From positions 1-64,000 of the forward strand of contig JAJFGL010000037.1 in the NCBI GenBank assembly GCA_021776135.1: a stretch of 64,000 bases of DNA, given 5' to 3'. Positions 4,277 through 37,250 of the stretch are shown here, one piece after another; the first letter of the stretch is position 1; each line of letters opens with the position of its first letter. Under the pieces are notes generated by a model. It was not told where the DNA came from. It saw nothing but the letters and a program-made list of their open reading frames with translations, and did not search any database. Source of the DNA: Kiloniellaceae bacterium. GTDB lineage: Bacteria; Pseudomonadota; Alphaproteobacteria; Kiloniellales; J153. Made by a program: the position numbers and the translations under genes.

Positions 4277-4293
4277 GGCGGCGCCTCCTAGTT

Positions 4294-11216: not shown

Positions 11217-11248
11217 CATGAGAATGACGTTTTACAGGACGCTGCCTG

Positions 11249-23102: not shown

Positions 23103-23512
23103 GCGCGGATTCGCAATGGGCCCTGCAGAAAGCGATCTTCGCCGCCCTAAGCGCGGATGCGGGTATCAAGGCCCTGATAGGAGACCCTCCGCGTATCTTC
23201 GATCATGTACCGCCGCAGAGCATTTTTCCCTACCTCGCGATCGGCGAAACGAGTTCGCGGCCTTTCGACGTGAAGACCAATGAAGGTATGGAGCAGACCC
23301 TAACGCTTCATTCATGGTCGCGCTATCGCGGCCTGAAGGAAATCAAGGATATCATGGCGGCGGTGGTGACTGCGGTGGACCGGCAGGCCTTGAGTTTAGC
23401 CGGGCACACACTCGTTCTGTTACGTTTCGAACTCGGCACGACATTTCTGGATAGCGACGGCCTGACCCGTCACGGCGTGCAAAGGTTCCGGGCCATCACC
23501 CAGGCATCGTGA
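23099..23512 (+). CDS. Tail terminator, DUF3168 family (GTA gp8-like)
   Basis: This 137-residue protein caps the tail tube. Family signs are LQKAIFAALSADAGIKALIGDPPRIFDHVPP, FPYLAIGETSSRPFDVK, LTLHSWSR and the C-terminal DGLTRHGVQRFRAI. Its TGA overlaps the GTG of the MAF-like gene that opens the glycosylation-type cassette. Confidence 0.9.
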   Translation: MSADSQWALQKAIFAALSADAGIKALIGDPPRIFDHVPPQSIFPYLAIGETSSRPFDVKTNEGMEQTLTLHSWSRYRGLKEIKDIMAAVVTAVDRQALSLAGHTLVLLRFELGTTFLDSDGLTRHGVQRFRAITQAS

Positions 23513-24153
23513 CGGCTTCCATGGCGGGGTATTGGGCGGTTCCGCGTCTCTGGCCCGCCTCCACCATCGTCTGCCTTGGCGGCGGCCCTAGTCTGACGGC
23601 GGAACAAGTGGCCCTGCTACGCGGCCGGGCCCGATGCCTGGCCATCAACGATGCCTGGCGCTTGGCGCCCTGGGCCGATGTTCTTTACGCCTGCGACGGG
23701 CGCTGGTGGCGAAAGCACGGCGGCGTGCCGGATTTCAAGAACCTCAAGGTGACGCTCTCCAACGGTGCGGATCAAGTCCGGGCCTGGCCTGAGATCGAGG
23801 TTCTGAAAAACACCGGCACCGAGGGTCTCGAGATATCGCCGCAAGGTTTACGCACCGGCCGCAACGGCGGCTATCAAGCGATCAATTTGGCGGTCCATCT
23901 GGGCGCCAGGCGCATTCTGCTTCTCGGCTACGACATGAAAGCGGATGCGCGCGGACGCACCCATTGGTTTGGCGATCACGATGATTGGCCGACCCGCCCA
24001 AATCTTTACCGCGATGTCTTTTTACCCCACTTCGAGGGATTGGCCCATGCCTTGGATGCGCACGGCGTCGCCACCGTTAACTGCACGCCCGGCAGCGCCC
24101 TCGATGTCTTTCCCAAGGCGTCCCTCGAGCAAGCGCTCGCCGACGGCCTATAA
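23509..24153 (+). CDS. MAF/DUF115-like protein (glycosyltransferase-associated)
   Basis: This 214-residue protein carries the DUF115 / MAF-like fold core: VCLGGGPSLTAEQVALLRGRA, then CLAINDAWRLAPWADVLYACDGRWW and GRNGGYQAINLAVHLGARRILLLGYDMK. In larger MAF proteins this domain transfers nonulosonic acids to flagellin. An alternative relative is the MptE 6-hydroxymethylpterin diphosphokinase, which fits the context less well. It begins at GTG 23509, overlapping the tail terminator stop, or at ATG 23521. It is the first of four genes placed between tail terminator and major tail protein. Confidence 0.7.
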   Translation: MTASMAGYWAVPRLWPASTIVCLGGGPSLTAEQVALLRGRARCLAINDAWRLAPWADVLYACDGRWWRKHGGVPDFKNLKVTLSNGADQVRAWPEIEVLKNTGTEGLEISPQGLRTGRNGGYQAINLAVHLGARRILLLGYDMKADARGRTHWFGDHDDWPTRPNLYRDVFLPHFEGLAHALDAHGVATVNCTPGSALDVFPKASLEQALADGL

Positions 24154-24934
24154 CCTGCTGCCAAGCCGCTTCGCCGATGGCCGCCACGAAACCATTCTGG
24201 GCGGGCTCCGGCGCGCCGGCTGGCGTATCGCCGAGGGACCTGGGCATCCGCGGTGCCGCCAAGACCTGCTGGTCACCTGGACCCGCCATCGCGGCGCCAA
24301 GGAGGACGCGGCGCGCGCCTTCGAAGCCGCCGGCGGGCAAGTCCTGGTATGCGAGGAAGCCTATCTGCGCCAGGTCAGGGGAGAGCGGGCCTTCGCCATC
24401 TCCCTGCACGATCACAACGGGGCGGGCCGCTGGCGCCCAGGCGGCCCGGAACGCTGGACCTCCTTCGGCATCGAGCTTCGGCCATGGCGCCGGGCTGGCA
24501 CGCATATCCTGCTTGCGGAACAACGCGGGATAGGCAGCCGGCGCATGGCCAGCCCGCCCTTGTGGCATGACGATGCCGGGGCCCGTTTAAAACGCCTATC
24601 GAAAAGGCCGGTCCTGTTTCGCGCCCACCCGAAAAGCCGCCTCTATCCCGAACTGGCGCAAGCTCAAGGATCGCTGGATGAGGCCCTGACAGGCGCGCAC
24701 GCCCTTGTCATCTGGGCCGGGAGCGCCGCGGTGCGGGCCTTGATACAAGGCGTGCCGGTTTTTTACGAAGCGCCCGAGTTGATTTGCGCGGGCGCCTGCC
24801 AGCGCGGTCTTGACGATATCGAGATACCGGCCTACCCGGATCGCCTGCCGGCGCTGGAACGCCTGGCCTGGGCGCAATGGAATGTCAGCGAAATCGCCAG
24901 CGGCGCGCCCTTCGATTGGTTGATGGCGGCATGA
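24104..24934 (+). CDS. Glycosyltransferase-like protein (surface polysaccharide type)
   Basis: This protein of about 276 residues has a C-terminal half resembling polysaccharide transferases of the capsule (KpsC/KpsS-like) type: RPVLFRAHPKSRLYPELAQAQGS, DEALTGAHALVIWAGSAAVRALIQGVPVFYEAP. The first part has WRIAEGPGHPRCRQDLLVTW. No ATG lies after the upstream stop in this frame before the conserved part, so ATG 24104, giving a 50-bp overlap, is the best start. The ATGA overlap with the next gene shows coupling. The donor sugar is unknown. Confidence 0.62.
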   Translation: MSFPRRPSSKRSPTAYNLLPSRFADGRHETILGGLRRAGWRIAEGPGHPRCRQDLLVTWTRHRGAKEDAARAFEAAGGQVLVCEEAYLRQVRGERAFAISLHDHNGAGRWRPGGPERWTSFGIELRPWRRAGTHILLAEQRGIGSRRMASPPLWHDDAGARLKRLSKRPVLFRAHPKSRLYPELAQAQGSLDEALTGAHALVIWAGSAAVRALIQGVPVFYEAPELICAGACQRGLDDIEIPAYPDRLPALERLAWAQWNVSEIASGAPFDWLMAA

Positions 24935-25446
24935 GCGAAGGCGCCCTGATCGGGCAATACCGGCTCATGCATGCGCGCGGTGGAACCTTCGCCGGCCGTT
25001 CCCTCTTGCGGGTCGCCTGGCGGGTTTACGATGCCGTACAGCGCCATGGGGCGGTGAGCTTGCTCGACTACGGCTGCGGCCAGGGCCAGCAGTACGAGCG
25101 CTATAAGGTCCATGAGTGGTGGGGCGTGCCGCGCCCGGCGCTCTACGATCCCGCCGTCCCACGATATGCCGAGCGGCCGTCCGTTACCTTCGACGGCGTG
25201 ATTTGCAGCGATGTCCTGGAACACGTTCCCCGCGACGAGCTGGACGGCGTGCTGAGCGATTGTTTCGAATCCGCGCACAAGTTCGTTTTCTTCTCCATTT
25301 GCTGCCGGCCCGCCTACAAGTCGCTGCCCAATGGCATGAATTGCCACGTCACCGTCGAACAACCGCCGTGGTGGAACAGCCGTCTGCAGGAATTCAAGGC
25401 CTCGCGGCGGCACGAGGCGGAGCTGATAACGGTTTTCTCTCACTAA
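24931..25446 (+). CDS. SAM-dependent methyltransferase in the glycosylation-type cassette
   Basis: This 171-residue class I methyltransferase is compact. Motif I is SLLDYGCGQGQQYERYK, and the catalytic-region segment is DGVICSDVLEHVPRDELDG, as in phage and polysaccharide-cluster methyltransferases. The acidic ribose-binding residue after motif I is not obvious in the normal place (WWGVPRPALYDPAV follows). It overlaps the preceding gene by ATGA and is 19 bp before the glycosyltransferase. It may methylate a sugar built by the cassette (inference). Confidence 0.7.
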   Translation: MSEGALIGQYRLMHARGGTFAGRSLLRVAWRVYDAVQRHGAVSLLDYGCGQGQQYERYKVHEWWGVPRPALYDPAVPRYAERPSVTFDGVICSDVLEHVPRDELDGVLSDCFESAHKFVFFSICCRPAYKSLPNGMNCHVTVEQPPWWNSRLQEFKASRRHEAELITVFSH

Positions 25447-25465
25447 ACAAACGGAGAGTACCATC

Positions 25466-26158
25466 CTGAAGATCTACATCGGCTGGGATCAACGCGATAT
25501 CGCCGCTTTCGAGGTTTGCCGCCGCTCCTTGCTGCGCCATGCCTCTTGCCCGCTCGAGATCGTGGCGCTTAAGGATTTGGAGCTGCGCGCCAAGGGTATT
25601 TACTGGCGGCCCTATTCGGTCGACGAACGCGGCCAGATGTGGGATGCGCGCGACGGGCGGCCCTTCTCGACCAACTTCAGCTATACGCGCTTTTGTATTC
25701 CGCTACTGGAGGAATTCGGGCCCGGCCCGGCCGTTTTTTGCGATGCCGACATGCTGTGGCGCGCGGATGTCGCGGAGCTACTCGAGATAGCCGGTGACGC
25801 CCCGGTGGCCTGCGTGAAACACCAGCACCGGCCGCGCGAACGCGAAAAAATGGCGGGCCTTATTCAAACGGTCTATCCGCGTAAGAACTGGTCCAGTCTC
25901 ATGGTCTTGCGCCCCGAACGCTGTGCCGCTCTGACCCCCTACGCGGTCAACAACCGTAGCGGCGCCTGGCTGCATGGCATGAACTGGATCGACGAGGCAT
26001 CGATCAAGGCTTTACCGGAATCCTGGAACTGGCTGGAAGGATGGTCGGATCCGGGGATCGAAGCCAAGATCGCGCACTTCACGCGCGGCACACCCGATAT
26101 GGCCGGGTGCGAAACGGCCACCCATGCCGAGGAATGGCGAAACTGCATTCGCCCGTAA
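25466..26158 (+). CDS. GT8-like glycosyltransferase with non-ATG start
   Basis: This protein of about 230 residues shows a glycosyltransferase fold: KIYIGWDQRDIAAFEVCRRS at the N-terminus, FSYTRFCIPLLEEFG, and the donor/metal motif AVFCDADMLWRADV, a DxD-type signature (DAD). It continues with VYPRKNWSSLMVLRPERC and HGMNWIDEASI. The essential first strand lies upstream of the first ATG in frame (25529), so translation must begin earlier. CTG 25466 is preceded 7-8 nt upstream by GGAGAGT; ATC at 25463 is the other option. This is a rare start or a sequence error. It is the last cassette gene; the major tail protein follows after 34 bp. Confidence 0.8.
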   Translation: MKIYIGWDQRDIAAFEVCRRSLLRHASCPLEIVALKDLELRAKGIYWRPYSVDERGQMWDARDGRPFSTNFSYTRFCIPLLEEFGPGPAVFCDADMLWRADVAELLEIAGDAPVACVKHQHRPREREKMAGLIQTVYPRKNWSSLMVLRPERCAALTPYAVNNRSGAWLHGMNWIDEASIKALPESWNWLEGWSDPGIEAKIAHFTRGTPDMAGCETATHAEEWRNCIRP

Positions 26159-26192: not shown

Positions 26193-26609
26193 GTGGCGGC
26201 ACAAAAAGGTAAACTCGTTCTCTTGAAGGCCGACCTGACCGGCGCTTCGCCCCAGGTTTTCACAACCCTGGCGGGCCTGCGCACGACGACCTGGACCATC
26301 AACGGCGAAGACGTCGATGTCACCACCAAGGACGATAACGGCTGGCAGCAGCGCTTGTCCGGCGCCGGCGTGCGTTCGCTCAATATTTCCGCGGGCGGCG
26401 TCTTTCAAGATAGCGCCGGCGAGGAGGCCGTGCGCCAGTGGGCCTTCAATCAGAGCATCAACCGCTTCGAAATTACATTCGAGAACGGCGACCGCCTGGA
26501 ATGCGCGTTTCAAATCTCCAACTACGAGCGGGCCGGGGACCATGACGGGGCGGAGACCTACTCGCTCACGCTCAATTCCCACGGCACGCCCGTTTACGTG
26601 GCGCTCTGA
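26193..26609 (+). CDS. Major tail protein (GTA gp9-like)
   Basis: This 138-residue tail tube subunit is of TP901-1 / GTA gp9 type. Typical segments are GKLVLLKADLTGASPQVFTTLAGLRTT, then WTINGEDVDVTTKDDNGWQQ, SGAGVRSLNISAGGVFQDS and FQISNYERAGDHDGAETYSLTLNS. The start is GTG 26193, with GAGGAGG about 10 nt upstream. It precedes the two tail assembly chaperone-type genes. Confidence 0.92.
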   Translation: MAAQKGKLVLLKADLTGASPQVFTTLAGLRTTTWTINGEDVDVTTKDDNGWQQRLSGAGVRSLNISAGGVFQDSAGEEAVRQWAFNQSINRFEITFENGDRLECAFQISNYERAGDHDGAETYSLTLNSHGTPVYVAL

Positions 26610-26611
26610 GC

Positions 26612-26986
26612 ATGGCCAACAAAGCGCGCGGTGAGGTCAAGCTGGAGCTGGGCGGGGAGACCTACGTTCTCCGTCCCACCTTCGGCGCGGTTTGCGAGAT
26701 CGAAGACGCGATCGGCGCCAACCTCTTCGATATGGGCCGCAAACTCGAGCGGGCCGAGATCACGGCGCGGGACTTGGTCAAATTTACCCAAGCCTGCATC
26801 GCGCAATCGGGAACTTCGATCGATGTGGATAAGCTGGGGGAGGCGATCGTCGCGCAAGGCTCTCTCGGCGTCGTCACGGCCTTGGTCGGGTTCTGTCAAA
26901 GCTACGCCTTTGGCGGGAGCGGGGAAAAAAAAGCCGCCAATCCGCCCGCGCCGAAACTTCCGGCGGTGACGGCGCCTACGTCCTAG
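26612..26986 (+). CDS. Gene transfer agent family protein, tail chaperone (GTA gp10-like)
   Basis: This 124-residue protein matches the gene transfer agent family (Phage_TAC_11): RGEVKLELGGETYVLRPTFGAVCEIEDAIG, then LGVVTALVGFCQSYA. In GTAs and related phages it is thought to assist tape measure and tail tube assembly. It lies 2 bp after the major tail gene. The C-terminus is Pro/Ala-rich. This family name and its place next to rcc01693-like gp10.1 are strong evidence for GTA ancestry. Confidence 0.93.
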   Translation: MANKARGEVKLELGGETYVLRPTFGAVCEIEDAIGANLFDMGRKLERAEITARDLVKFTQACIAQSGTSIDVDKLGEAIVAQGSLGVVTALVGFCQSYAFGGSGEKKAANPPAPKLPAVTAPTS

Positions 26987-26991
26987 CCTAC

Positions 26992-27207
26992 ATGAAGGTC
27001 GCGCTCGGCCGCCTCGGCTGGGCGCCGCCGGTATTCTGGGCCGCGACCCCGCAAGAATTCTGGGCCGCCTTCGACGATTGGGTGAGCGTCAATTGCATCC
27101 AAAAAGACGCCGGCGCCTTGAGCGGGGACGAGGTCGAACGCCTGGAAGATATGAAGCGGCGGTTTCCGGATCGGGCTGAGGCGCCCATGCCTAACCGCGC
27201 CACCTGA
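26992..27207 (+). CDS. rcc01693-like tail assembly chaperone (GTA gp10.1-like)
   Basis: This 71-residue protein has the family pattern LGWAPPVFWAATPQEFWAAFD of the rcc01693 / Phage_TAC_6 group. It starts 5 bp after the gp10-like gene. In RcGTA the tape measure gene follows at once, but here 3.2 kb of interrupting genes and remnants come first. Its 3' end overlaps by 17 bp the remnant of an opposite-strand secreted-protein copy. Confidence 0.88.
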   Translation: MKVALGRLGWAPPVFWAATPQEFWAAFDDWVSVNCIQKDAGALSGDEVERLEDMKRRFPDRAEAPMPNRAT

Positions 27208-27560
27208 TATTCAAAAAACTGGTGAAGTATCTCATCTTACCTGGGTACGAATAAGTAACTTCTATTTCGCAAATTCGGTAAGGAAGTTCCGGGTCTGCCG
27301 TGATTGGACAGAAAAACTGTAGCCAGTACTCATGCGCCGGAGTCGGGCCGCGTAAGCCGCAGCGTAGTACGTCTACTTTGACAACGCCTGGCCGCATAAC
27401 ATCTCTTAGTTCGAGTCGACATCCTATGCGCCAAATCTCCTTGCTCGGTATGACCGCTTCGGGTGTGGCGCATACAGGTCTTGTATTGTTCGGAACTGCG
27501 AACCTGCATCCTAGGCGTGCGATCTTCTCGTAGTCTTCTCGACGGTACGGAAAACAATGG
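27191..27560 (-). pseudogene. Decayed, chimeric copy of the four-Cys exported protein family
   Basis: The last 68 codons (27191-27397) match the exported protein at 28948-29445 (DVLRCG..., FxxPITxDPELPY, NIRWRG at the end). The frame continues upstream with RPVCATPEAV, lacking about 15 residues compared with that copy. Further upstream it has ARLGCRFAVP, a motif that belongs after, not before, RPVC. That order suggests that two copies recombined. No start or signal peptide was found, so this is a broken fourth copy. Confidence 0.72.
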
Positions 27561-27610
27561 CAGGGTATATGACGCTCAGGCTCTCGCGTATGACACGCGC
27601 TCTGCGAGGT

Positions 27611-28036
27611 TCAGCGCCAGGCGCCTAGTAGATTTTCACGATATGTATAGAAAATTTTGACCCATTGACCCGGGTGCCATGCTTGTATCTCACAGACCTT
27701 CTCCGGAAGCACCGGTTTCCAGTCAATGATATCTGAATACATGACGACACCCCGAATGCCTTTGGGTGTGCCGGGACCGCAACGAATCGTATGAAGCCAA
27801 ATTTCTGATGGCAGCATTATTCTGCATCCCAAACGCGCCAGCCCGTCCTTATCCAAGGCCGGCCTTGCCCACGCCGCAGATTCTAGCGCCGCTAGATCCT
27901 CACAAATGGGCCATCGTTCAAGGAGGGACACTGCATGAGCCTCTCGATGAGTCATTGTAGACCATGCCAAGGTAACAAACACAGTGCACAATGTTGCTAT
28001 AACGTTTGTACCAACAAAGCTTTCAGTGACTTTCAA
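27611..28036 (-). CDS. Exported four-Cys protein, copy 2
   Basis: This 141-residue protein belongs to a family seen only in this block. A signal peptide-like N-terminus ends near REAHA. The mature part has four Cys in contexts shared with the other copies: PICEDL, ARLGCRIMLP, HTIRCGPGTP and EKVCEIQAW, then an aromatic-rich end (FYTYRENLL). Two disulfides in the periplasm are likely. The start is TTG at 28034-28036, with AGGA upstream. It is antisense to the late operon and AT-richer than the surroundings. Function is unknown. Confidence 0.7.
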   Translation of the reverse strand: MKVTESFVGTNVIATLCTVFVTLAWSTMTHREAHAVSLLERWPICEDLAALESAAWARPALDKDGLARLGCRIMLPSEIWLHTIRCGPGTPKGIRGVVMYSDIIDWKPVLPEKVCEIQAWHPGQWVKIFYTYRENLLGAWR

Positions 28037-28127
28037 CGGAAGTCATCCTAAATCTTGCAACATAAAAATGGTATTTAAGTAAACGGTATTTTTAAGTATG
28101 TGTTGAGTAGATACGTTATTGCCATGC

Positions 28128-28559
28128 TCATGGCAGCCCGCTTTGAACGTTGTAGAGAAATGTAAACAAGGTGCCTCGCCACCGTCGCGGCCACACAATA
28201 TCAATTTCGCATACCCCTATTGGAAGTTTCGCATCGAGAGAAATAGGGTAGTTAAATTTGTCCCGAGATTTTTTCGATATACCCGCTTCGCAGCGAAGCA
28301 CGCGAACTCGTACTGTATCCGGTACCGCGATGAGGCATCCAAGGCCGATAATTCCTTTCGTATTGCCCTCAAGGAAGAATCTCAGCGCCGGCCTGACTGA
28401 TAAAGGGTCGTTACACGTCGGCACACTGTTAGACAAAGTTCCGGCTTTGACATTAGTCGCAAAAATGGTGCTAAGGAAAATTAATACGGCCAGGCATGTA
28501 ATGGATAGAAATATTGGCCTTGTGCTCATTCCTTCTTGCTCGTTCAAGTGAATCTCCAT
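28128..28559 (-). CDS. Exported four-Cys protein, copy 3
   Basis: This protein of up to 143 residues has a strongly hydrophobic signal segment (PIFLSITCLAVLIFLSTIFA) and a cleavage-type end NVKAG. The mature part repeats the family pattern: TCNDPLSVRPAL, IGLGCLIAVP, RVRVLRCEAG and IGVCEIDIVW. Starts at 28559 or 28529 are possible; the latter has AAGAAGG only 1 nt away, so 28559 is kept. It is paralogous to, but well diverged from, the copies at 27611 and 28948. Confidence 0.7.
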   Translation of the reverse strand: MEIHLNEQEGMSTRPIFLSITCLAVLIFLSTIFATNVKAGTLSNSVPTCNDPLSVRPALRFFLEGNTKGIIGLGCLIAVPDTVRVRVLRCEAGISKKSRDKFNYPISLDAKLPIGVCEIDIVWPRRWRGTLFTFLYNVQSGLP

Positions 28560-28720
28560 CCATTTAGGTAGGCGATTTAGAGTCAGATACGATGGTATTA
28601 ATTCAAATCAAAATCCAACTAACCGAGACATAGTTTGTCAGAATCCGGCGCTCCGTTAAGCTCCCGGGGAGTTGAACTGACGCTAACCTAGGTGACCCTT
28701 CAACACAACCAGGGTAAGTC

Positions 28721-28951
28721 ATGGAAACCGAAGGAATCAGATTTGAGATATTGGCCGAAACCAAAGGCCTCGATGCGGCGCTTAACAAGATTGAGCAGTC
28801 GACGGACGGTTTGGCCAAAAAATTAAATACCGGTTTCAATATCGCCGATCAAACGTACGCGGCGCAGAAAGGCTTGGAGCAGGATATCCTGCGTACCCTG
28901 ACCCGCTGGTTTTTCATGCACTGTCCGGGTCATGAGGTGCTGGCGGCCTAA
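28721..28951 (+). pseudogene. Tape measure protein remnant 1 (5' end plus internal piece)
   Basis: This 76-codon frame starts METEGIRFEILAETKGLDAAL, laid out like the N-terminus of the tape measure protein at 30427. It then jumps to KGLEQDILRTLTR, which matches GLEQDILRILTR from the middle of that protein and is close to it even at the DNA level. After that the frame is unrelated. It is a tape measure copy that lost most of its length by internal deletion. Confidence 0.7.
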
Positions 28952-29445
28952 TTTTCCACGGCACCACGCTTGGTTGGCGGCGTATGGGTCGCCTTCGAAC
29001 CGCGCCATCTGATGTTCACATAGCTGGTGTAGTATCTTAATTTGCCTTGGTAGGAGAAAGTAGCTTCTATTTCGCAAACTTGGTAAGGAAGTTCCGGGTC
29101 CACCGTGATTGGATAGAAAAACTGTAACCCGTACTCTTGCTCCGGAGTCGGGCCGCGTATGCCGCAGCGCAGTACATCTATTTCGTCAACGCCTCGTACG
29201 CCCAATTCGCCATCGCTTAGCTTGATAACATGTCTTAGTACAAGATCGCATCCGAGGCGCCTAATCTCCTTGAGGCGCCAAAAAATGTCCTCGTCCTGAT
29301 TACGCCAAATCTCCAGGCTCGGCACGACCGCTTCGGGTGTTTCGCATACCGGCCTTATATTGAGTAGCTCCTCAGCGATCGCGTTATGGTTCATAGGCGA
29401 TAAAAGAATTAACGCGGTGAATAAACTAAGCCTAGAAAATTTCAT
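28948..29445 (-). CDS. Exported four-Cys protein, copy 4
   Basis: This 165-residue protein has a clear signal peptide (MKFSRLSLFTALILLSPMNH...AIA) and the best conserved mature domain of the set: RPVCETPEAVVPSLEIW, RRLGCDLVLRHVIK, IDVLRCGIRGPTP and YQVCEIEATFSYQGKL, followed by YYTSYVNIRWRG. The four Cys are shared with the three other copies. Its 3' end abuts tape measure remnant 1 and its 5' end faces remnant 2. No family was recognised. Periplasmic location is likely. Confidence 0.74.
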   Translation of the reverse strand: MKFSRLSLFTALILLSPMNHNAIAEELLNIRPVCETPEAVVPSLEIWRNQDEDIFWRLKEIRRLGCDLVLRHVIKLSDGELGVRGVDEIDVLRCGIRGPTPEQEYGLQFFYPITVDPELPYQVCEIEATFSYQGKLRYYTSYVNIRWRGSKATHTPPTKRGAVEN

Positions 29446-29570
29446 GCCTTGGCCTATCGGTAACCGTTTTCAAGCACAAACATGTCCATACACATGCTGG
29501 CTTAAGGACGGTAACAGCATATCGGCATGAATCAGGGTTGTCAGCCGGTAAAGAAGGGAGGACGGATATA

Positions 29571-29714
29571 GTGGAAACCGAGACCGATAGGCTTTCAATC
29601 AGGATCGAGGCGGATGCTAGTCCCTTGGAAGCGTCATTCAAGCGGATCGAACGCTCAACGAAAAACTTAAACGAAAACTTGAAAGGGGCTTTAGGTTTCT
29701 CGTTGCGCGAATAG
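29571..29714 (+). pseudogene. Tape measure protein remnant 2 (5' end only)
   Basis: This 47-codon frame from GTG 29571, with an excellent AAGGGAGGA upstream, reads METETDRLSIRIEADASPLE and then a Lys/Asn-rich helix, ending at TAG. It parallels the first 45 residues of the tape measure gene at 30427 and of remnant 1. The translation start signals are intact although nothing else of the tape measure remains. It could be a leftover or a short expressed peptide. Confidence 0.62.
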
Positions 29715-29879
29715 CAAATACCAATGGCAGGTGCTGTTGCGGTTCCGATCAAAATAAATCGGAAGTGATAATATTTTTACTAGCAAGACCCGCACTCAAA
29801 AACGGTCGATTATATACCGTGCCGGATGACCAATGATAGGTGGCGAAATCGATAGGATTCTGCGGCGAACTGCGTGATC

Positions 29880-30041
29880 TTAAGAGAGATGGCTGTGCAA
29901 ATAATAGAAAAGGATAACAATCATCATCACACGCAAAAACATATAAATTCGGCCGTTATTCATAATCCTGCCGCAATGCGGGCATTCAACGGCCACGGAA
30001 CTAACTTGTTTGCGGCAATCGGTGCAAAACTTTAATGCCAT
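29880..30041 (-). CDS. Zinc-ribbon membrane microprotein 1
   Basis: This 53-residue protein has MALKFCTDCR, then AVECPHCGRI, a four-Cys zinc ribbon (CxxC...CxxC). A single membrane span follows (MFLRVMMIVILFYYL) with a short basic tail. It is similar in layout and sequence to the next gene at 30087-30251. It is antisense to the late operon, between tape measure remnant 2 and the intact tape measure gene. It is probably an inner-membrane protein; function unknown. Confidence 0.66.
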   Translation of the reverse strand: MALKFCTDCRKQVSSVAVECPHCGRIMNNGRIYMFLRVMMIVILFYYLHSHLS

Positions 30042-30086
30042 GGTGGATTTCCCTGGTTCGGCGGCAAGCCAGTACGCATGGCGCGG

Positions 30087-30251
30087 CTATAGGTCAAAGA
30101 AAACTATGTAGATACCCACGAATAGAGTAATGATCGGCACGCCGACAAAGAAATTGACAACCTCCCAGTGAGTGATCCAACCGCAATGCGGGCAACGCCG
30201 GGCGCTTGTGCTGATATCGTTAGAGCAATCGTGGCAGCGTCTTAGGGCCAT
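30087..30251 (-). CDS. Zinc-ribbon membrane microprotein 2
   Basis: This 54-residue paralogue of the preceding microprotein has MALRRCHDCS, then ARRCPHCGWI, followed by a membrane span (VVNFFVGVPIITLFVGIYIVFF). The two share the MAL start, the CxxC spacing and the order ribbon then membrane, but differ in most other residues, as expected of an old duplication under selection. It is 45 bp from its neighbour. The space 30252-30426 before the tape measure gene holds no other gene. Confidence 0.66.
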   Translation of the reverse strand: MALRRCHDCSNDISTSARRCPHCGWITHWEVVNFFVGVPIITLFVGIYIVFFDL

Positions 30252-30426
30252 GGAATCCCTTTTGTAAAAATGCGACCAACCCAGATCAACATGAGCAAAT
30301 GTAGCTTGATGTGGCGATTGACTAAAAAATTATCGCACCTTAGCACAAGCACTAAAAATACGCGATTCGATATCTTCGATCAATCGAAAGCTTCACATAC
30401 GATCTCTAATTCTTGAGGATATGACT

Positions 30427-31773
30427 ATGCCGGAAGTGGACAGCTTGACCCTTCGTATAGAGGTTGATTTGAGCGACCTAAGAAGCGGGCTCAGCGAGGC
30501 TAACCGGCTTGTGAGCGAGTCGAGCCGGAGCATGATCCAATCGCTTGCTGGTGTCGAAAAGTCTCTGGGAAGAATCGGATCCATGAGCGCCACGCTCCAG
30601 CCGCCGGTGGGTAAACCAGAGCGCCAAATTTCTGCGGAAGATAGGATAGCGGGCGCGGGCCTAGGCGCAACTATTGCGGGCGGTGCGGCAGCAATAGCTG
30701 TAGCATTGGGAGCCGCCGTAGCCGTCACAGCCGCCGCAATTACATTAGCTTTGGCTGCTGGCGCGGTTTTGGGCGCGTTCATCCCCGATGTCAGGGCAAC
30801 GCTATCCGATGCGCTTGCAGAGCGATCATCTGCGGAGCGGCTCGCCGACCTCGAAAGCCGGATTAGCCAACTCCAAAGCATGCAAGGGAAACGAACCGAC
30901 ATAGAGTTTGGGGATGCCACCCGGGAGAAAGAACTAGCGGAGAAAATTGACCGCTTGCAGAAAGAGCGTTCCGAATTACTGCGTTTGCTGGAAAAAGTAT
31001 CAGCGATTCCGGAAGCTATGGACCTCGGCCAAGGCGGGACGATCGGGGGCTCCGATAGTTTCGGAACGCTTACCGGTGGAGCTGGTGGCGATATCCTGCT
31101 GACCACAGAGCGTGTTGAAGATCTCGGCACGGCCTTCGAGGGCGCAGGCGCTAAGGCTGAAAATTTCGCGGAAATACAGTCCAATGGCCTTGATACCCTT
31201 GCGCAAAAGTCCGAAGAAACACGTAACTCCATACGTAACCTCGACAGCGCCGCGCGTGACCTGGGGTTCACCTTCGCTTCTTCCTTCGAGGACGCCGTAG
31301 TTAAAGGCCGGAGCCTGTCCGATGTGCTGCAGGGCTTGGAACAGGACATTCTGCGTATCCTGACCCGCAAGCTTGTGACCGAACCCCTGGCGGGCGCTGT
31401 CACGGGGTTGATCGGAAGCGGCCTCGGCGTGCTTTCCGGGGAGTTTCACGGTGGCGGCCGGGTTGGGTCGGCGTCCGTTTCGGATCGTGTGGTGCCGGCC
31501 TCGCTTTTCGCCGGGGCGCCGCGCTTCGCCGGCGGCGGCCTGGTCGGGCGGGTGCCGCGCTTGGCCCCCGGCGAGGTGCCGGCCATCCTGCACCGCGGCG
31601 AGATCGTGCGCACCCCCGCGCAAGAGGCCGCGTTGCGGCGAAGCGGCGGCGGCGGCGATACGCAAATCGTGGTGAACATTCAAACGCCCAACCCGCGCGC
31701 CTTCAACGAATCGCGCGGCCAGATACAGGCCATGCTGGCCGATGCCGTCGGCGCCGGCCGCCGCAACCGCTAA
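30427..31773 (+). CDS. Tape measure protein (GTA gp11-like)
   Basis: This protein of about 448 residues sets tail length and threads DNA into the target cell. It starts MPEVDSLTLRIEVDLSDLRSGL and has a hydrophobic Ala/Gly-rich membrane-active segment (about 85-125). A coiled coil follows (ADLESRISQLQ..., LAEKIDRLQKERSELLRLLEKV), then a conserved C-terminal part: DVLQGLEQDILRILTRKLV and the Gly-rich FAGGGLVGRVPRLAPGEVPAILHRGEIV. The last segment is a mark of GTA/lambdoid tape measures. ATG 30427 has GAGG at 8 nt; ATG 30421 is too near. It is clearly longer than the short RcGTA gp11. Confidence 0.9.
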   Translation: MPEVDSLTLRIEVDLSDLRSGLSEANRLVSESSRSMIQSLAGVEKSLGRIGSMSATLQPPVGKPERQISAEDRIAGAGLGATIAGGAAAIAVALGAAVAVTAAAITLALAAGAVLGAFIPDVRATLSDALAERSSAERLADLESRISQLQSMQGKRTDIEFGDATREKELAEKIDRLQKERSELLRLLEKVSAIPEAMDLGQGGTIGGSDSFGTLTGGAGGDILLTTERVEDLGTAFEGAGAKAENFAEIQSNGLDTLAQKSEETRNSIRNLDSAARDLGFTFASSFEDAVVKGRSLSDVLQGLEQDILRILTRKLVTEPLAGAVTGLIGSGLGVLSGEFHGGGRVGSASVSDRVVPASLFAGAPRFAGGGLVGRVPRLAPGEVPAILHRGEIVRTPAQEAALRRSGGGGDTQIVVNIQTPNPRAFNESRGQIQAMLADAVGAGRRNR

Positions 31774-31805: not shown

Positions 31806-32414
31806 ATGAGCTTTGATGAAGTCCGCTTGCCCAGCAAGATCGAATTCGGCGCCCAGGGCGGCCCGCGATTCCGCACCGAGGTGGTGGTGCTTGGCAGCGG
31901 TCACGAACAGCGCAATGCCGAGTGGAGCGCCACCCGCGCCGCTTGGGATGTGGCGCCCGGTATCCAAAGCACGGCGGACTTGGACGCCATGATCGCCTTT
32001 TGGTACGCGCGCCAGGGTCGCCTGCGCGGTTTCCGCTTCAAGGACCACACGGATTTCTCGGTTACCGGCCAGGTTCTGATCGCGGCGGTGGCGGGCGGGG
32101 AGACCGGCGTTCAGCTCGTGCGCAGCTATGAAAGCGGCGGGCGCAGCTTCACCCGCGAGGTAACCAAGCCGGTGGCGGGCAGTGTGCAGCTTTTCCTGGA
32201 CGGCGTACCCCTGGCCTCCAGTACCGATACCGCGACCGGCATGGTCAGCTTCGCCGCCTTGCCGGGCGGCTCGCCGCAAGCCGTGTTAAGCGCCGACTTC
32301 GCCTTCGACGTGCCGGTGCGCTTCGATACGGACAACCTGGAAATACGCCAGGTCACCCACGCCCGCGACGCGGTGCAATCTCTGCCCATCGTCGAAATTC
32401 GCGACATCGCATGA
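31806..32414 (+). CDS. Distal tail protein, DUF2460 family (GTA gp12-like)
   Basis: This 202-residue protein matches DUF2460 / TIGR02217. Signs include FDEVRLPSKIEFGAQGGPRF, RNAEWSATRAAWDVAPGI, AFWYARQGRLRGFRFKDHTDFS, the tail DVPVRFDTDNLEI and IVEIRD. It forms the ring at the tail end before the hub. The stop overlaps the next ATG (ATGA). Confidence 0.95.
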   Translation: MSFDEVRLPSKIEFGAQGGPRFRTEVVVLGSGHEQRNAEWSATRAAWDVAPGIQSTADLDAMIAFWYARQGRLRGFRFKDHTDFSVTGQVLIAAVAGGETGVQLVRSYESGGRSFTREVTKPVAGSVQLFLDGVPLASSTDTATGMVSFAALPGGSPQAVLSADFAFDVPVRFDTDNLEIRQVTHARDAVQSLPIVEIRDIA

Positions 32415-33499
32415 AGACCATCAGTCCCGAGTTGACCGCGCACCTGGCCGGCGCCGCGCTCACGCTCGCCACCTGCTGGAAGATAGAGCGCCGCGACGGC
32501 GTTGTCCTCGGTTTCACCTCTCACGACCGCGACTTGACGTTCGACTTACTGGACGGCGGCGGGCCGCTCGCCTATGTGGCGGCCAGCGGCTTCACCCGCA
32601 GTAACATCGCCGGCCTGGCCGGTTTCGCGGCCGACAATCTGGATGTGGAAGGGGTTCTGGATTCCGCCGCCATCACCCTGGAGGATCTGCGGGCAGGGCG
32701 TTACGACTTTGCCGAAATCAAGGTCTTCGAGGTCAATTACACAGACCTTGGCCAAGGCGCCTTGAAGCTGCGCCGGGGCCAGGTCGGCCAGACCCGCGCC
32801 GAGGGCCAGGTGTTCGTCGCCGAACTGCGCGGTCTGGCCGAGCGTTACAGCCAAGAGATCGGCGAGCTCTACAGCCCCTCGTGCCGGGCCGATTTGGGCG
32901 ATGAGCGTTGCGGCGTCCGCCTGCCGCCGCCTGCTTGGCAGGCCAGTACCGCTTATACGCTCCCCCAGGTGCGCGACGCGGGCACGGGATCGGTTGTGCG
33001 TCCCTCGGCCTTCAACGATCGGCACTTCCGCTGCGTCCAGGCCGGCGCCAGCGGCGGCGCCGAACCGGCCTGGAACCTTAGTCTGGGTGGCCAAACCCTG
33101 GACGGCGGCGCGATTTGGGAAACCGGACGGGCCCTCACAATCGAGGCCACGGTCGCCGCGGTCACCGACAATCGCGCCTTTACGCTGAGCTATGGCGGCG
33201 ATGCGCCCGATGCGCTTCTGACCGGCGGCGTCTTGACCTTCACGGCCCTCGCCAGCCCGGCGCCCGCGAACCTCGATCTTAAGATGGAGGTGAAGTCATG
33301 GAACTTGGCGGCCAAGGCCATGACTCTGTTCCTGCCCATGCCCTTCGACGTTGCGCCGGGCGATAGCGTGAGCATCTCGGCGGGCTGCGACAAGTCGCTC
33401 GCCGTATGCCGCGACACCTTCGACAACTTGCTCAATTTCCGCGGCGAGCCTTACGTGCCGGGTAACGACCTTTTGCTGCGTACGCCCGATGCCCGCTAG
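32411..33499 (+). CDS. Baseplate hub, DUF2163 family with extra module (GTA gp13-like)
   Basis: This 362-residue protein has DUF2163 signs TCWKIERRDGVVLGFTSHDRDL and LRGLAERYSQEIGELYSPSCRADLGD. Cys157, Cys166, Cys325 and Cys333 (ERCGV, GCDKSLAVC) fit the four ligands of the iron-sulfur cluster seen in the RcGTA hub. Residues about 175-240 carry an additional W...STAYTLPQV / HFRCVQAGASGGAEPAW / DGGAIWE module, typical of sugar-binding inserts in phage proteins, making it longer than RcGTA gp13. It overlaps both neighbours. Confidence 0.93.
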   Translation: MKTISPELTAHLAGAALTLATCWKIERRDGVVLGFTSHDRDLTFDLLDGGGPLAYVAASGFTRSNIAGLAGFAADNLDVEGVLDSAAITLEDLRAGRYDFAEIKVFEVNYTDLGQGALKLRRGQVGQTRAEGQVFVAELRGLAERYSQEIGELYSPSCRADLGDERCGVRLPPPAWQASTAYTLPQVRDAGTGSVVRPSAFNDRHFRCVQAGASGGAEPAWNLSLGGQTLDGGAIWETGRALTIEATVAAVTDNRAFTLSYGGDAPDALLTGGVLTFTALASPAPANLDLKMEVKSWNLAAKAMTLFLPMPFDVAPGDSVSISAGCDKSLAVCRDTFDNLLNFRGEPYVPGNDLLLRTPDAR

Positions 33500-33908
33500 A
33501 TCCGACCTGGTGATCGAGGCGCGGCGCTGGATCGGCACTCCATGGGTTCCGGCCGGGTCCGAGCGAGGGGTGGGGGCGAACTGCCTGGGGTTCCTGGCCG
33601 GGGTCGCGCGTAATCTCGGATTGAGCGACTTGGCCGGCGCCTTCATGCCCTATCGCGGCCATGCCGCGCCGCCGACCTCCAAGACCCTGTTGCTGGGTCT
33701 GCGCCGGCATCTGCGGCGCTGGCCCTTGGCGGCGGCCGCGCCCGGCGACTTGTTGCTGTTCGATCTGGGCGCGGGCCTGCGCCATGTCGCCATGTTGAGC
33801 GCCCAGGACACCATCGTCCATGCCCATCAGGCTCAAGGGAAGGTAGTCGAACAGCGCCTGGCCTGGGCGCCGCACAGCGCCTACCGCATTCCCGGATTAT
33901 TAGATTAG
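33489..33908 (+). CDS. NlpC/P60-type cell wall peptidase (GTA gp14-like)
   Basis: This 139-residue tail peptidase has the catalytic Cys in GVGANCLGFLAGVAR and the His in LRHVAMLS, with a third polar residue at VHAHQAQG. WIGTPWVPAGS at the start is typical. It probably opens peptidoglycan for DNA entry. It overlaps gp13 by 11 bp and is followed by the megatron gene after 18 bp. Confidence 0.92.
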   Translation: MPARSDLVIEARRWIGTPWVPAGSERGVGANCLGFLAGVARNLGLSDLAGAFMPYRGHAAPPTSKTLLLGLRRHLRRWPLAAAAPGDLLLFDLGAGLRHVAMLSAQDTIVHAHQAQGKVVEQRLAWAPHSAYRIPGLLD

Positions 33909-33926
33909 GACCGAGGAGCGACGCAC

Positions 33927-36900
33927 ATGGCGACTTTAGCACTCAGCCTGGGCGGCGCCGTGGCGGGCGGTCTTATCGGTGGGCCGACTGGCGTTCAGGC
34001 GGGTTTTCTCGCCGGGCAGTTCGCGGGCAATGTCATATTCGGCAACGGCGACGATCGTATCGCCGAAGGGCCGCGTTTGACCGACTTAACGGTCACATCT
34101 TCCACATACGGCCGGCCGATCCCTATTATATATGGTAGTTTCCGTCTTGGCGGTAATGTCGTCTGGTCGCCGGGGATAAAGGAGCTTCGTCAGGAGCAAA
34201 CCCAAGGCGGCAAGGGCGGCGGGGCGGCGCAAACAAGCGTAACCTTCCGCTATACCGCCGACTTCCGCATAGCCTTGTGCGAAGGGCCGATTCAAGCGGT
34301 CTTGCGGGTTTGGGCCGATGGTAAATTGATCGTCGATTTCACCGGCATGGCGCCCGTGTTCGGCGGCAAGATACGCCAGGCTCAAATGCGGGTTTACCTG
34401 GGCGGCGAAGCGCAGCAACCGGATCCGGCGGAACAGGCCGACCGCGGAATCGAGAATGCCCCCGCTTATCGCGGCCAGGCCGGGATCGTGTTCGAAAATC
34501 TGCCTCTTGAAGACTTCGGCAACCGCATACCGCAGATCACGGCGGAGATCGCGACCGCCGCCAACGAAACCTTCCCGACCGCCAGTGCGGCGACCTTCGC
34601 CACGCCGATCACGCAACTGGCGCGTTGGAGCCACGATCGCCGGTTCCTCTACACGCTCTCGACCGATGGGGTCGCTACCAAGTGGGATGTGGCCGAGCGC
34701 CGGCAGTCGGTTGGCAAGGATATCGGTGTCGGGGAAGCCTTCTGTCCCGGACTTGACCGCGACGGAAACCTGTATTCCGGGAACGGATTTGGCAAAGTCG
34801 TGAAGTATGACGATTCTTGGACCCAAATCGGCATTTCACCCACGGCGATGACGCAGAACTTCGCCAATCTTATCGTCGCCGGCCAAGCCGGATTCGAGCG
34901 TGTTATCGCTCAAGGCTTAACCGGGAATATTGGAATATTTTCCGCGACAACGCAGAAGCTTCTCAACGAGCTTAAGCTTTCGGATTTTGCCGCACCGACC
35001 GCCGGCACCTACCGGGCGACACTGGACCGCAACGGCATGGCGGCCGATGCGGAGGGTTTCGTCTGGACCCTGGTGGTCGATGGCGCGGCCGATGGATATC
35101 TTTTCAAGATCGATCCCGGCATAGGATCGGTGCGCGAGCGCCATGTCCTAACCGGAAAGAACGGGGCGCGCTACCTATCCTATGACGAAACGACCAATAG
35201 TCTGATCGTCGAGGAAAGCGGTGCGGCCGGTCTATTTCGCTTTAGCCTCGACACCTTAACCATCGACGCCAGCTTGGCTGTCGTTCTGAACGCGACCGTC
35301 GATAACCGCACTCAGTATTGTAATGGTCCCTTGGGAGGGCGGTTATGGTTGCAGGCAACGACGATCGCCTTCGAGATCGATACCGCCAGTTTCACGGTCC
35401 TGCGCATCGTATCTATTACGAGCTGGCCCACGATCCCGCCGGTGCAGCAGATGGTTTACGATGCCTTGAACAACGCACATATCTGGTTCGATGCTTTTCC
35501 CTCGACGCTGTACTGGGCCTATCTCGACCGTCAAACCGGTTTAACGGTTACTCTGGGCGGTATTGTCGACGATGTCTCTAGCCGGGTCGGGCTCACCCCG
35601 CTCGGCGATCTCGATACCTCGGCGCTTGGCGGCGCCGTGACTGGATTTGCGATCACGGATCGTATGAGCGCGCGGGCGGCCTTGGAGCCCTTGGCAAGCG
35701 CCTATTTCTTCGATGCGCGGGAAGAAGATTTCAAGGTCGTCATGTTGGCGCGCGGCGGCGCGCCGGTGGTCACGATCCCTGAATCGGATCTTGGCGCCCG
35801 GGCTTTTGGCGACACCGGTTTCGTGCCCTTGCTGGGGGAGGAACGTATCCAGGAGATTGAACTGCCCCGGCGTATAGATGTGACCTACGCCGACCCGTCC
35901 CTGGATTATCAAACCAACACTCAGTTCTTTCAGCGCGTGCGTGAGGCGGTCGCCACACGGGCCCTCAAGGTCATCCGTCTGCCCCTCGCCCTGAGCGAAG
36001 CAGAGGCCGCGCAACGGGTCGAGAAGGTCGGTTTCCAAACCTGGCAGGCGCGCACCCCTTACGACCTGCGCGTTTCGCGAAAACATGCCCGGATCAGCGC
36101 CGGTGATGTCATCAGCGTGACCGCCAAGGGCGCCACCGCCAGCTTACGGGTCGAGTCCCTTGACTATGGGGCCGATGGGGTGATCCGTGTACGCGGCGTG
36201 TCCGAGGATGCTGTTGTCTACGATAGTTCGGCGGCCGGCGTCGCGGGCCTGGGGGTTCCGGCGCAATCCATTGCCCTGGCCGGACCTACGGCATTTTTCC
36301 TCATGGATACGCCGCTTCTGCGCGACGCGGAGGAGGGCTTGGGGATCTACGCCGCCGCCGGCGCCTTGGGGACGGAAACCTGGCCCGGCGTTTCGATATT
36401 GAAGTCGGCCAATGGCGAGGCCTTCGACGCGCCCTTCCTCTTCGTGCCGGGCACCCGCAATGCGGTTCATGGCGCCAGCGAAACCATACTGCCGGATCAT
36501 GGCGCCCGCACCTGGGATCGCGTTAATTCCTTGACCCTGCGTCTGGCGCGCGGCGCCTTGGTTTCGGTCAGCGAGGCGGACGTCTTGAATGGCGCCAATG
36601 CTCTGTTGATCGGCGATGAAATCATTCAGTTCGCCGGCGCCAATCTCAACGCCGACGGGTCTTATACACTGGATACATTACTGCGCGGAAGACGCGGCAC
36701 CGAGTGGGCGGCCGGCGGCCATGGCCTGGGGGAAAGGGCCGTACTGCTCAGCGATGCAAGCTTGAGTCGCGTCAATCTGCCCGATACCGATGTGGGGGCG
36801 GTACGCTTCTACAAGGGCGTGACCTTGGGCGGCCCGGTGAGCGAGGGAACGCAGAAAACATTCACTCTTATCGGGCGTTCCCTCATGCCTTACGCCCCGG

Positions 36901-37250
36901 TCGATATTCGTGGCGCGCAAAGCGGATCGCCTAGCGACTGGACCCTAACCTGGCAAAGACGCACGCGCCTGGGCGGCGCCTGGAAGGACGCGGTCGATGT
37001 GCCTCTCGGCGAGGAAAGCGAAGCCTATGAGGTCGATATCCTGAATGGACCGGCGGTCGTGCGCACCATAACCGCCGTGGCTTCCAGCGGCGGCTCGCTT
37101 GTCACGCCCAGCACCCGGCAAGCCGTGTATTCAGGCGCGGATCAGATCGCCGATCTTGGCGGCGAGCAAGCCTCGCTCAGCCTTCGCGTTTATCAAATGA
37201 GCGCGACGCTGGGACGCGGATTTCCCGGATCGGCCGTGGTTGCCGGATGA
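33927..37250 (+). CDS. Megatron host-specificity protein with beta-propeller-like insert (GTA gp15-like)
   Basis: This 1107-residue protein forms the spike and central fibre. The N-terminus (GGAVAGGLIGGPTGVQAGFLAG; STYGRPIPIIYGSFRLGGNVVWS) and the C-terminal parts (PLASAYFFDAREEDFKVV, DVISVTAKGATASLRVES, LLRGRRGTEWA) match GTA phage-tail proteins. Residues about 225-540 instead look like a beta-propeller: RFLYTLSTDGVATKWDVAER, FCPGLDRDGNLYSGNGFGKV, GFVWTLVVDGA, NSLIVEESGAAGLFRFSLDT. I see no TIM-barrel glycoside hydrolase of the kind in RcGTA gp15. Receptor binding by the propeller is plausible. Confidence 0.9.
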   Translation: MATLALSLGGAVAGGLIGGPTGVQAGFLAGQFAGNVIFGNGDDRIAEGPRLTDLTVTSSTYGRPIPIIYGSFRLGGNVVWSPGIKELRQEQTQGGKGGGAAQTSVTFRYTADFRIALCEGPIQAVLRVWADGKLIVDFTGMAPVFGGKIRQAQMRVYLGGEAQQPDPAEQADRGIENAPAYRGQAGIVFENLPLEDFGNRIPQITAEIATAANETFPTASAATFATPITQLARWSHDRRFLYTLSTDGVATKWDVAERRQSVGKDIGVGEAFCPGLDRDGNLYSGNGFGKVVKYDDSWTQIGISPTAMTQNFANLIVAGQAGFERVIAQGLTGNIGIFSATTQKLLNELKLSDFAAPTAGTYRATLDRNGMAADAEGFVWTLVVDGAADGYLFKIDPGIGSVRERHVLTGKNGARYLSYDETTNSLIVEESGAAGLFRFSLDTLTIDASLAVVLNATVDNRTQYCNGPLGGRLWLQATTIAFEIDTASFTVLRIVSITSWPTIPPVQQMVYDALNNAHIWFDAFPSTLYWAYLDRQTGLTVTLGGIVDDVSSRVGLTPLGDLDTSALGGAVTGFAITDRMSARAALEPLASAYFFDAREEDFKVVMLARGGAPVVTIPESDLGARAFGDTGFVPLLGEERIQEIELPRRIDVTYADPSLDYQTNTQFFQRVREAVATRALKVIRLPLALSEAEAAQRVEKVGFQTWQARTPYDLRVSRKHARISAGDVISVTAKGATASLRVESLDYGADGVIRVRGVSEDAVVYDSSAAGVAGLGVPAQSIALAGPTAFFLMDTPLLRDAEEGLGIYAAAGALGTETWPGVSILKSANGEAFDAPFLFVPGTRNAVHGASETILPDHGARTWDRVNSLTLRLARGALVSVSEADVLNGANALLIGDEIIQFAGANLNADGSYTLDTLLRGRRGTEWAAGGHGLGERAVLLSDASLSRVNLPDTDVGAVRFYKGVTLGGPVSEGTQKTFTLIGRSLMPYAPVDIRGAQSGSPSDWTLTWQRRTRLGGAWKDAVDVPLGEESEAYEVDILNGPAVVRTITAVASSGGSLVTPSTRQAVYSGADQIADLGGEQASLSLRVYQMSATLGRGFPGSAVVAG

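What the first reader, a model, noticed from the sequence alone, without database searches (positions are those of the whole stretch)
27191..30251. Array of four-cysteine exported proteins antisense to the tail operon, next to the tape measure gene
Four paralogues (one decayed and chimeric) share an export signal where intact and four Cys in fixed contexts (PxC, LGC, xRCxxG, VCEI). They lie on the opposite strand between tail chaperone genes and tape measure gene, in AT-richer DNA. I know no family with this pattern. Proteins that block DNA entry are often encoded near tape measure genes and act at the inner membrane or periplasm, so a superinfection- or entry-exclusion role in GTA recipients is a reasonable hypothesis. 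The copies diverge strongly while keeping Cys, suggesting diversifying selection.
Basis: partly seen in the sequence, partly recalled or inferred. Interest (0 to 1): 0.9.

Follow-up and report, generated by a model that had tools for sequence, protein, structure and literature searches.

The report
Periplasmic proteins paired with tape-measure alleles
Beside the gene for the tail "ruler" that a bacterial gene-transfer particle injects into its neighbours, this genome carries a pile-up of small exported proteins left over from earlier ruler versions, which probably block or screen incoming particles that carry the matching ruler.

Summary
Three intact paralogues and one chimeric pseudogene, each with four invariant cysteines and (where intact) a signal-peptide-like start, lie antisense between tail-chaperone and tape-measure (TMP) genes of a vertically inherited, RcGTA-type gene transfer agent (GTA) cluster in a Kiloniellaceae MAG. 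The Cys family was found only at GTA TMP loci: three of four congeners, one viral contig, one genome of another order. It co-occurs exactly with one TMP N-terminal type. TMP alleles turn over at a fixed locus; displaced TMPs are always broken while accessories mostly stay intact (0/7 versus 13/15), under purifying, not diversifying, selection. Elsewhere in Alphaproteobacteria unrelated envelope-protein genes also sit divergently beside TMP, and HK97's exclusion protein gp15 occupies the same chaperone-TMP slot. Best reading: TMP-allele-linked entry-exclusion modules acting in the periplasm. Function is inferred; sequence cannot tell whether they block or admit particles.

The parts
26193..27207 (+). 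GTA g9 (26193-26609, major-tail-protein position), g10 (26612-26986, PF11836 GTA-gp10) and TAC g10.1 (26992-27207, PF09550): upstream boundary of the TMP slot
   Evidence: Pfam hits for g10 and TAC; g9 by position and 80-94% identical homologues in relatives
27191..27547 (-). CysA: chimeric, decayed copy of the four-Cys gene (G002-like 5' piece fused to a CysD-like body)
   Evidence: tblastn to CysD E 1e-40; frame reading; 85% DNA identity to the CysD gene over 197 nt
27611..28036 (-). CysB: intact four-Cys exported protein (141 aa, TTG start), no TMP remnant left beside it
   Evidence: (profile E 6e-58)
28128..28559 (-). CysC: intact four-Cys exported protein (143 aa); AF2 model of an alpha+beta domain, mean pLDDT 81
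28721..28951 (+). Remnant of a type-2 TMP: about 50 N-terminal codons fused to a shard of the conserved C-terminal region (GLEQDILRTLTR), divergent from CysC
   Evidence: 49% identity over 51 aa to G002 TMP2; TMP2-N profile E 9e-9; 79% DNA match to TMP1 31317-31368
28948..29445 (-). CysD: intact four-Cys exported protein (165 aa)
29571..29714 (+). Second TMP 5' remnant (47 codons then stop), divergent from CysD
   Evidence: blastp to short GTA TMPs E 2e-6 and to G069 TMP E 1e-5; TMP2-N profile E 5e-4
29880..30041 (-). ZnRa: 53-aa zinc-ribbon plus one TM helix; accessory of TMP type 1
   Evidence: homologues in G002 and L043
30087..30251 (-). ZnRb: 54-aa zinc-ribbon plus one TM helix; accessory of TMP type 1
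   Evidence: its G002 orthologue matches zinc-ribbon models below cut-off
30421..31773 (+). Active TMP type 1 (450 aa): type-1 variable N-terminal/middle region with a hydrophobic hairpin, and the conserved GTA C-terminal region (about residue 265 on)
31806..37250 (+). g12 (DUF2460), g13 position, g14 (NlpC/P60), g15 megatron (Rcc01698_C): downstream GTA tail genes
   Evidence: Pfam, except g13 (32411-33499), which is named by position only; same neighbours at the same locus in relatives

Best explanation
The four-Cys genes are accessory halves of two-gene modules [exported or membrane protein <- | -> tape measure with its own variable N-terminal/middle region] that are swapped into the TMP slot of a resident GTA cluster. 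SHOWN BY SEQUENCE: the Cys gene travels with one TMP type (TMP2) and a zinc-ribbon/TM pair travels with another (TMP1). A new module ends up fused to a copy of the resident TMP C-terminus and leaves the old TMP truncated. The displaced TMP decays while the accessory gene mostly stays intact. INFERRED MECHANISM: the Cys protein is secreted to the periplasm and folds with disulfides. When a GTA particle (or phage) carrying a TMP2-type tape measure ejects it into the periplasm, the Cys protein binds that variable region and blocks the DNA conduit, excluding particles with the matching TMP. ZnRa/ZnRb would do the same at the inner membrane for TMP1, whose middle region has a hydrophobic hairpin. 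Old accessory genes are kept because relatives still make particles with the older TMP.
For: (1) The family is found only at GTA TMP loci: 3 of 4 congeners, one genome of another order, one viral contig; not elsewhere among 63 order, 385 class and 399 phylum genomes (overlapping samples), nor in phages/plasmids. (2) Cys and the TMP2 N-region occur in the same genomes, and no other sampled class genome has either; TMP2-N is homologous between orders (E 2.6e-21) while the TMP1 middle is unrelated. (3) Accessories intact 13/15 versus displaced TMPs 0/7, p=2e-4. (4) Purifying selection: dN/dS 0.15 and 0.27. (5) Displaced and active TMP C-termini are 92.5-95% identical within a genome versus 79-85% between genomes, in three genomes. 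(6) Antisense and exported, so not co-transcribed with the late operon and not placed for cytoplasmic tail assembly. (7) HK97 gp15 lies exactly between tail chaperone and TMP; its exclusion is escaped by hybrids with HK022 tail-tube and TMP genes, and the Ltp block is overcome by TMP changes (PMC10883804). (8) RcGTA is described as ejecting TMP and DNA into the periplasm (PMC7296036). (9) Unrelated envelope genes lie divergently beside TMP in G019, G143, G185 and G367.
Against: No functional data. Few genomes carry the family, and they are MAGs, one on a short contig (G069, 3.7 kb). The L043 copy has a stop in the signal peptide and CysA has decayed, so the genes are not indispensable. TMP genes are about three times longer than the accessories and the swap itself truncates them, so the intact/broken contrast is partly mechanical. 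TMP1-ZnR and TMP2-Cys pairing rests on six adjacencies, not all independent. Why a GTA-producing population should exclude GTAs is not obvious. No recognised Sie domain or fold.
Confidence: 0.5

Rival explanations
1. Kin-specific acceptor: the exported protein helps cells receive DNA from particles with the cognate TMP (an entry factor rather than a block), so the GTA locus encodes both donor TMP and recipient partner.
For: Same linkage and retention evidence. GTA systems are known to make recipient-side proteins needed for DNA uptake (abstract of PMC9765227). It would explain why a GTA, whose role is delivery, keeps the gene.
Against: The described TMP-linked envelope proteins (HK97 gp15, Ltp) block entry (PMC10883804). 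Most GTA clusters surveyed have no such gene, so it is not generally needed.
Confidence: 0.13
2. Effector-immunity: the variable TMP region damages recipients (for example as a pore), and the exported protein is the periplasmic immunity protein, in the manner of displaced Rhs/CDI modules that keep immunity genes.
For: Displaced, decayed 'effector' with retained intact partner; module exchange at a fixed locus; TMP1 has a hydrophobic hairpin. Periplasmic disulfide-bonded immunity proteins exist (colicin M immunity protein, from memory).
Against: No toxin domain by Pfam or PHROG. The TMP2 region is predicted all-helical with very low confidence and still aligns weakly with tape-measure profiles.
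Confidence: 0.13
3. Ordinary morons: the TMP flank is simply a tolerated insertion site for genes that benefit the host in ways unrelated to particle entry.
For: Different unrelated genes occupy the site in different lineages, including a DUF805 protein and a lipoprotein on the other side of TMP. None has a known function.
Against: Genes directly divergent from TMP are envelope proteins in 6 of 6 unrelated cases, against 13% of background genes by the same hydrophobicity rule (heuristic). Specific co-occurrence with one TMP type across orders.
Confidence: 0.14
4. Tail-assembly or particle component dedicated to the long TMP.
For: Adjacency to TMP and tail chaperones; pairing with long TMP types.
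Against: Signal peptides and conserved Cys imply the periplasm, whereas tails assemble in the cytoplasm; the genes are antisense to the late operon; they are retained after their TMP is lost.
Confidence: 0.04
5. Non-functional debris of a decaying prophage region.
For: CysA, two TMP fragments and the L043 nonsense codon show active decay.
Against: Thirteen of 15 accessory copies are intact; copies only 24-34% identical keep all four Cys; dN/dS is well below 1; the flanking GTA genes are under strong constraint (g9 0.055, g12 0.10).
Confidence: 0.06

Closest known systems
HK97 gp15 moron (superinfection exclusion protein)
   Same: Same slot: a small envelope-protein gene between tail assembly chaperone and tape measure genes. 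HK97 hybrids with HK022 tail-tube and TMP genes escape its exclusion (PMC10883804).
   Different: gp15 is one 62-aa predicted inner-membrane protein on the sense strand in an active phage. Here there are exported four-Cys proteins (and zinc-ribbon/TM pairs), antisense, in several copies with decayed TMP fragments, in a GTA. No sequence relation detected.
Ltp of Streptococcus phage TP-J34, and Glo of Vibrio cholerae
   Same: Ltp is an exported exclusion protein outside the cytoplasmic membrane whose target was identified as the TMP; Glo is described as a soluble periplasmic sie protein (PMC3952083; PMC10883804).
   Different: ltp sits in the lysogeny module, not beside TMP. Neither was compared by sequence here.
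RcGTA-type gene transfer agents
   Same: Gene order, TAC/gp10/DUF2460/Rcc01698_C families, and chromosomal inheritance at a fixed locus.
   Different: Typical clusters have a short TMP (about 175-245 aa) directly after TAC with no accessory gene. Here the TMP is about 450 aa and comes with accessory genes and relics.
SNIPE (membrane-bound nuclease defence associating with siphovirus TMPs)
   Same: A host envelope protein that associates with TMP during genome injection (PMC13190303).
   Different: SNIPE is a DUF4041 membrane nuclease; no such domain here.
Rhs/CDI polymorphic toxin arrays with orphan immunity genes
   Same: Displaced modules accumulate; the partner gene outlives the displaced effector.
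   Different: The variable part is N-terminal/middle and the constant part C-terminal; no toxin domain seen. The comparison is from memory.

Membership tests
RcGTA-type gene transfer agent | Terminase, portal, S78 protease, capsid, gp10, TAC, TMP, DUF2460, NlpC/P60, megatron in RcGTA order | tested here: met
RcGTA-type gene transfer agent | Vertical inheritance at a fixed chromosomal locus | tested here: met
   Polyprenyl-synthase-like gene downstream at the same place in G000-G003; no integrase noted beside the cluster by eye
RcGTA-type gene transfer agent | Particles package random host DNA | not testable with these tools
   needs experiment
TMP-targeting superinfection exclusion morons (HK97 gp15 type) | Gene in the chaperone-TMP interval | tested here: met
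TMP-targeting superinfection exclusion morons (HK97 gp15 type) | Envelope-located product | tested here: met
   By prediction only: signal-peptide-like N-terminus (Cys) and TM helix (ZnR) by hydrophobicity; AF2 gives an N-terminal helix 14-34
TMP-targeting superinfection exclusion morons (HK97 gp15 type) | Own promoter and terminator | tested here: inconclusive
   One promoter-like site upstream of CysD, fewer than in shuffles; no terminator. Antisense orientation still implies separate transcription.
TMP-targeting superinfection exclusion morons (HK97 gp15 type) | Sequence homology to a known Sie protein | tested here: not met
   No Pfam, PHROG, NCBIfam or PADLOC family for the Cys proteins, no phage hit for CysD, no structural match
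TMP-targeting superinfection exclusion morons (HK97 gp15 type) | Blocks DNA entry of particles with a matching TMP | not testable with these tools
   Only genetic linkage to TMP2 shown
Polymorphic toxin-immunity module | Recognisable toxin domain in the variable part | tested here: not met
   AF2 of TMP2-N uninformative
Polymorphic toxin-immunity module | Displaced modules with partner gene retained | tested here: met
   13/15 accessories intact versus 0/7 displaced TMPs

The most novel reading that the evidence does not exclude
GTA loci carry exchangeable two-gene specificity modules, in which a TMP variable region is matched to a divergently transcribed envelope protein in the recipient. Serial replacement leaves a stack of old recipient-side genes, so a cell's repertoire of accessory proteins determines which relatives' particles can or cannot deliver DNA: an allele-matched compatibility system for gene transfer agents.
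Probability: 0.33. Interest if true: 0.9.

Novelty: new variant of a known kind. Interest (0 to 1): 0.72.

Why it matters
If right, gene transfer agents would have TMP-matched exclusion (or acceptance) factors, giving a testable genetic basis for who exchanges DNA with whom among alphaproteobacteria. The decayed TMP copies make the history of replacement readable. It would also extend TMP-targeted exclusion from phages to GTAs, to a new protein family and to a soluble periplasmic mode, and it suggests a simple screen: look for envelope genes divergent from TMP.

Tried and rejected
Pfam, PHROG, NCBIfam and PADLOC give no family for the Cys proteins. PDB by sequence and Foldseek against PDB and BFVD give no significant match; the best viral hit (A0A6H0X4V2, probability 0.96, E 0.08, TM 0.39/0.54) has no name and is too weak to use. 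Two weak class-level hits (G208, G372) lie in frames overlapping what look like an RND outer-membrane factor and an ABC solute-binding gene and were rejected. Diversifying selection rejected at gene level. The promoter scan was uninformative. AF2 of TMP2-N is low confidence (pLDDT 41) and was not used for a fold search. A tail-assembly role was rejected on export and strand.
Full report
WHAT IS THERE. The window is the first 64 kb of a 96-kb contig of a 3.96-Mb genome. Its relatives are Kiloniellaceae MAGs (OFTM series). At 12.6-37.2 kb lies an RcGTA-like cluster: terminase, portal, S78 protease, capsid, GTA-gp10, TAC, TMP, DUF2460, NlpC/P60 and megatron. The same cluster with the same downstream polyprenyl-synthase-like gene occurs in G001, G002 and G003, so it is vertically inherited like a GTA. 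On the minus strand between TAC and TMP are CysB, CysC and CysD (intact) and CysA (chimeric pseudogene). Four Cys are invariant in the mature parts of all homologues although identity to CysC is only 24-34%.

Between the Cys genes, on the plus strand, lie two decayed TMP 5' ends: 28721-28951 (N-terminal codons of a TMP fused to a C-terminal shard) and 29571-29714. Two 53-54 aa zinc-ribbon/TM genes precede the active TMP. The repeating unit is therefore a divergent pair: accessory gene <- | -> TMP.

RELATIVES. In G001 the order is TAC, broken old TMP, Cys <-, TMP type 2 ->, g12. In G002 it is TAC, ZnR pair <-, TMP type 1 (C-terminally truncated), Cys <-, TMP type 2 ->, g12. In G003, G005 and G008 a short TMP (230-261 aa) follows TAC directly and there is no accessory gene. 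Viral contig L043 has TAC, broken TMP, Cys (one stop in the signal peptide), intact ZnR pair, contig end. In G069, of another order, TAC is followed by a TMP remnant, a gp10-like gene, Cys <- | -> TMP fragment, then Cys <- | -> long TMP. The family was not found in other genomes: 63 of the order, 385 of the class, 399 of the phylum, plus phage and plasmid collections. These are samples that partly overlap, not complete collections.

PAIRING. The N-terminal/middle region of TMP2 is homologous between G001/G002 and G069 (E 3e-19 and 3e-21), while the TMP1 middle region is unrelated; all Kiloniellaceae types share the same C-terminal region. A TMP2-N profile finds only G000 (both remnants) and G069 among 289 class genomes, the same two genomes that carry Cys genes in the class sample. 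Among the congeners it finds G001, G002 and the G000 remnant, not G003. Adjacent pairs seen are ZnR-TMP1 (G000, G002) and Cys-TMP2 (G001, G002, G069, and CysC with a TMP2 remnant). The numbers are small and G000 and G002 are not independent.

TURNOVER. Within a genome the displaced and active TMP copies share a C-terminal segment at 92.8% (G001), 95.3% (G002) and 92.5% (G069) DNA identity, against 79-85% between genomes. Each replacement thus fused a new N-region to a copy of the resident C-terminus and left the old gene truncated. Accessory genes: 13 of 15 intact; displaced TMP copies: 0 of 7 (Fisher p=2e-4; the tally is mine). Caveat: TMP is longer, and truncation is part of the exchange.

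SELECTION. NG86 dN/dS: Cys L043-G002 0.15, G069 pair 0.27; ZnRb 0.25; ZnRa 0.09 (dS saturated); TMP1 N-region 0.22; TMP C-region 0.11; g12 0.10; g9 0.055. This is purifying selection, weaker than on structural genes. Pairwise counts cannot exclude a few diversifying sites.

A WIDER PATTERN. Among class genomes with a GTA-type TAC (45 of 385), most have TMP directly after TAC and, where g12 was recognised, a TAC-g12 distance near 650 bp. Exceptions carry envelope genes at the TMP: a membrane protein in G019, an exported protein in G185, a two-TM protein in G143 and a lipoprotein in G367, all antisense and directly upstream of TMP; also a DUF805 protein (G337) and a lipoprotein (G198) between TMP and g12. 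With Cys and ZnR, six of six unrelated families divergent from TMP pass a hydrophobicity rule that 13% of background genes pass. ORF calling here was heuristic, the G019 call competes with an overlapping ORF, and CysD itself falls below the cut-off although its family passes.

STRUCTURE. AlphaFold2 of CysC with the eight-sequence alignment gives pLDDT 81 and pTM 0.68, with an N-terminal helix and a mature alpha+beta domain. No significant structural relative. The TMP2-N model is all-helical and unreliable.

HOW IT PROBABLY WORKS. RcGTA is described as ejecting its TMP with DNA into the periplasm, where DNA waits for the competence machinery (PMC7296036). A secreted, disulfide-bonded protein is in the right compartment. 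TMP is the specificity determinant for known exclusion proteins: HK97 hybrids with HK022 tail-tube and TMP genes escape gp15, and TMP alterations overcome the Ltp block (PMC10883804); SNIPE probably binds siphovirus TMPs (PMC13190303). HK97 gene 15 lies between tail chaperone and TMP in the record. I therefore propose that the Cys proteins, and in the same way ZnR, are TMP-type-specific entry-exclusion factors kept after their TMP has been replaced. Shown: anatomy, linkage, turnover, constraint. Inferred: export, binding, block. An acceptor role, or immunity to a harmful TMP region, fits the same sequence facts.

NOVELTY. The Cys family has no match in any library searched. The literature searches here showed no description of TMP-linked exclusion genes in GTAs among the titles and abstracts listed, but only a few of those papers were opened and most subscription papers are not held. 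The working principle has precedent, so I call it a new variant of a known kind.

Noticed in passing
window 23509-26158: Extra genes inside the GTA cluster between the g8 and g9 positions (weak MptE-like match, a gene at 23945-24934 not annotated here, a methyltransferase-like gene and a glycosyltransferase-like gene). The first or last of them, or both, are found in the same place in G001, G002, G003 and G005; not part of the RcGTA cluster as I remember it, possibly glycan modification.
   Followed up: partly
window 19202-20647: 481-aa protein that looks like a LamG/concanavalin-type lectin domain by eye, encoded among the GTA head-tail genes after the capsid gene; possible surface-binding decoration.
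   Followed up: no
window 8364-12376: Large type IIG restriction-modification-like gene (950 aa, by eye) and a 375-aa gene on the opposite strand, in lower-GC DNA directly upstream of the GTA cluster.
   Followed up: no
L022 (G007) 4033-4740 and L038 (G069) 636-1022: Repeated or displaced gp10 copies: two gp10-like genes in a row in G007, and in G069 a gp10-like gene after the first TMP remnant, so exchange may sometimes take gp10 along.
   Followed up: partly
L106 2710-3234; L107 3317-3859; L085 1712-3016: Other envelope or exported genes near TMP or TAC in distant alphaproteobacteria: a DUF805 membrane protein (antisense), a lipoprotein (sense) and a signal-peptide Sel1-repeat protein (sense, after TAC).
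   Followed up: partly
L092 6-269 (-) and 455-910 (+): G185: an exported-protein gene intact beside a TMP N-terminus that ends at a stop after 87 codons, the same intact-accessory/broken-TMP pattern with an unrelated accessory; the contig is only 3 kb.
   Followed up: partly
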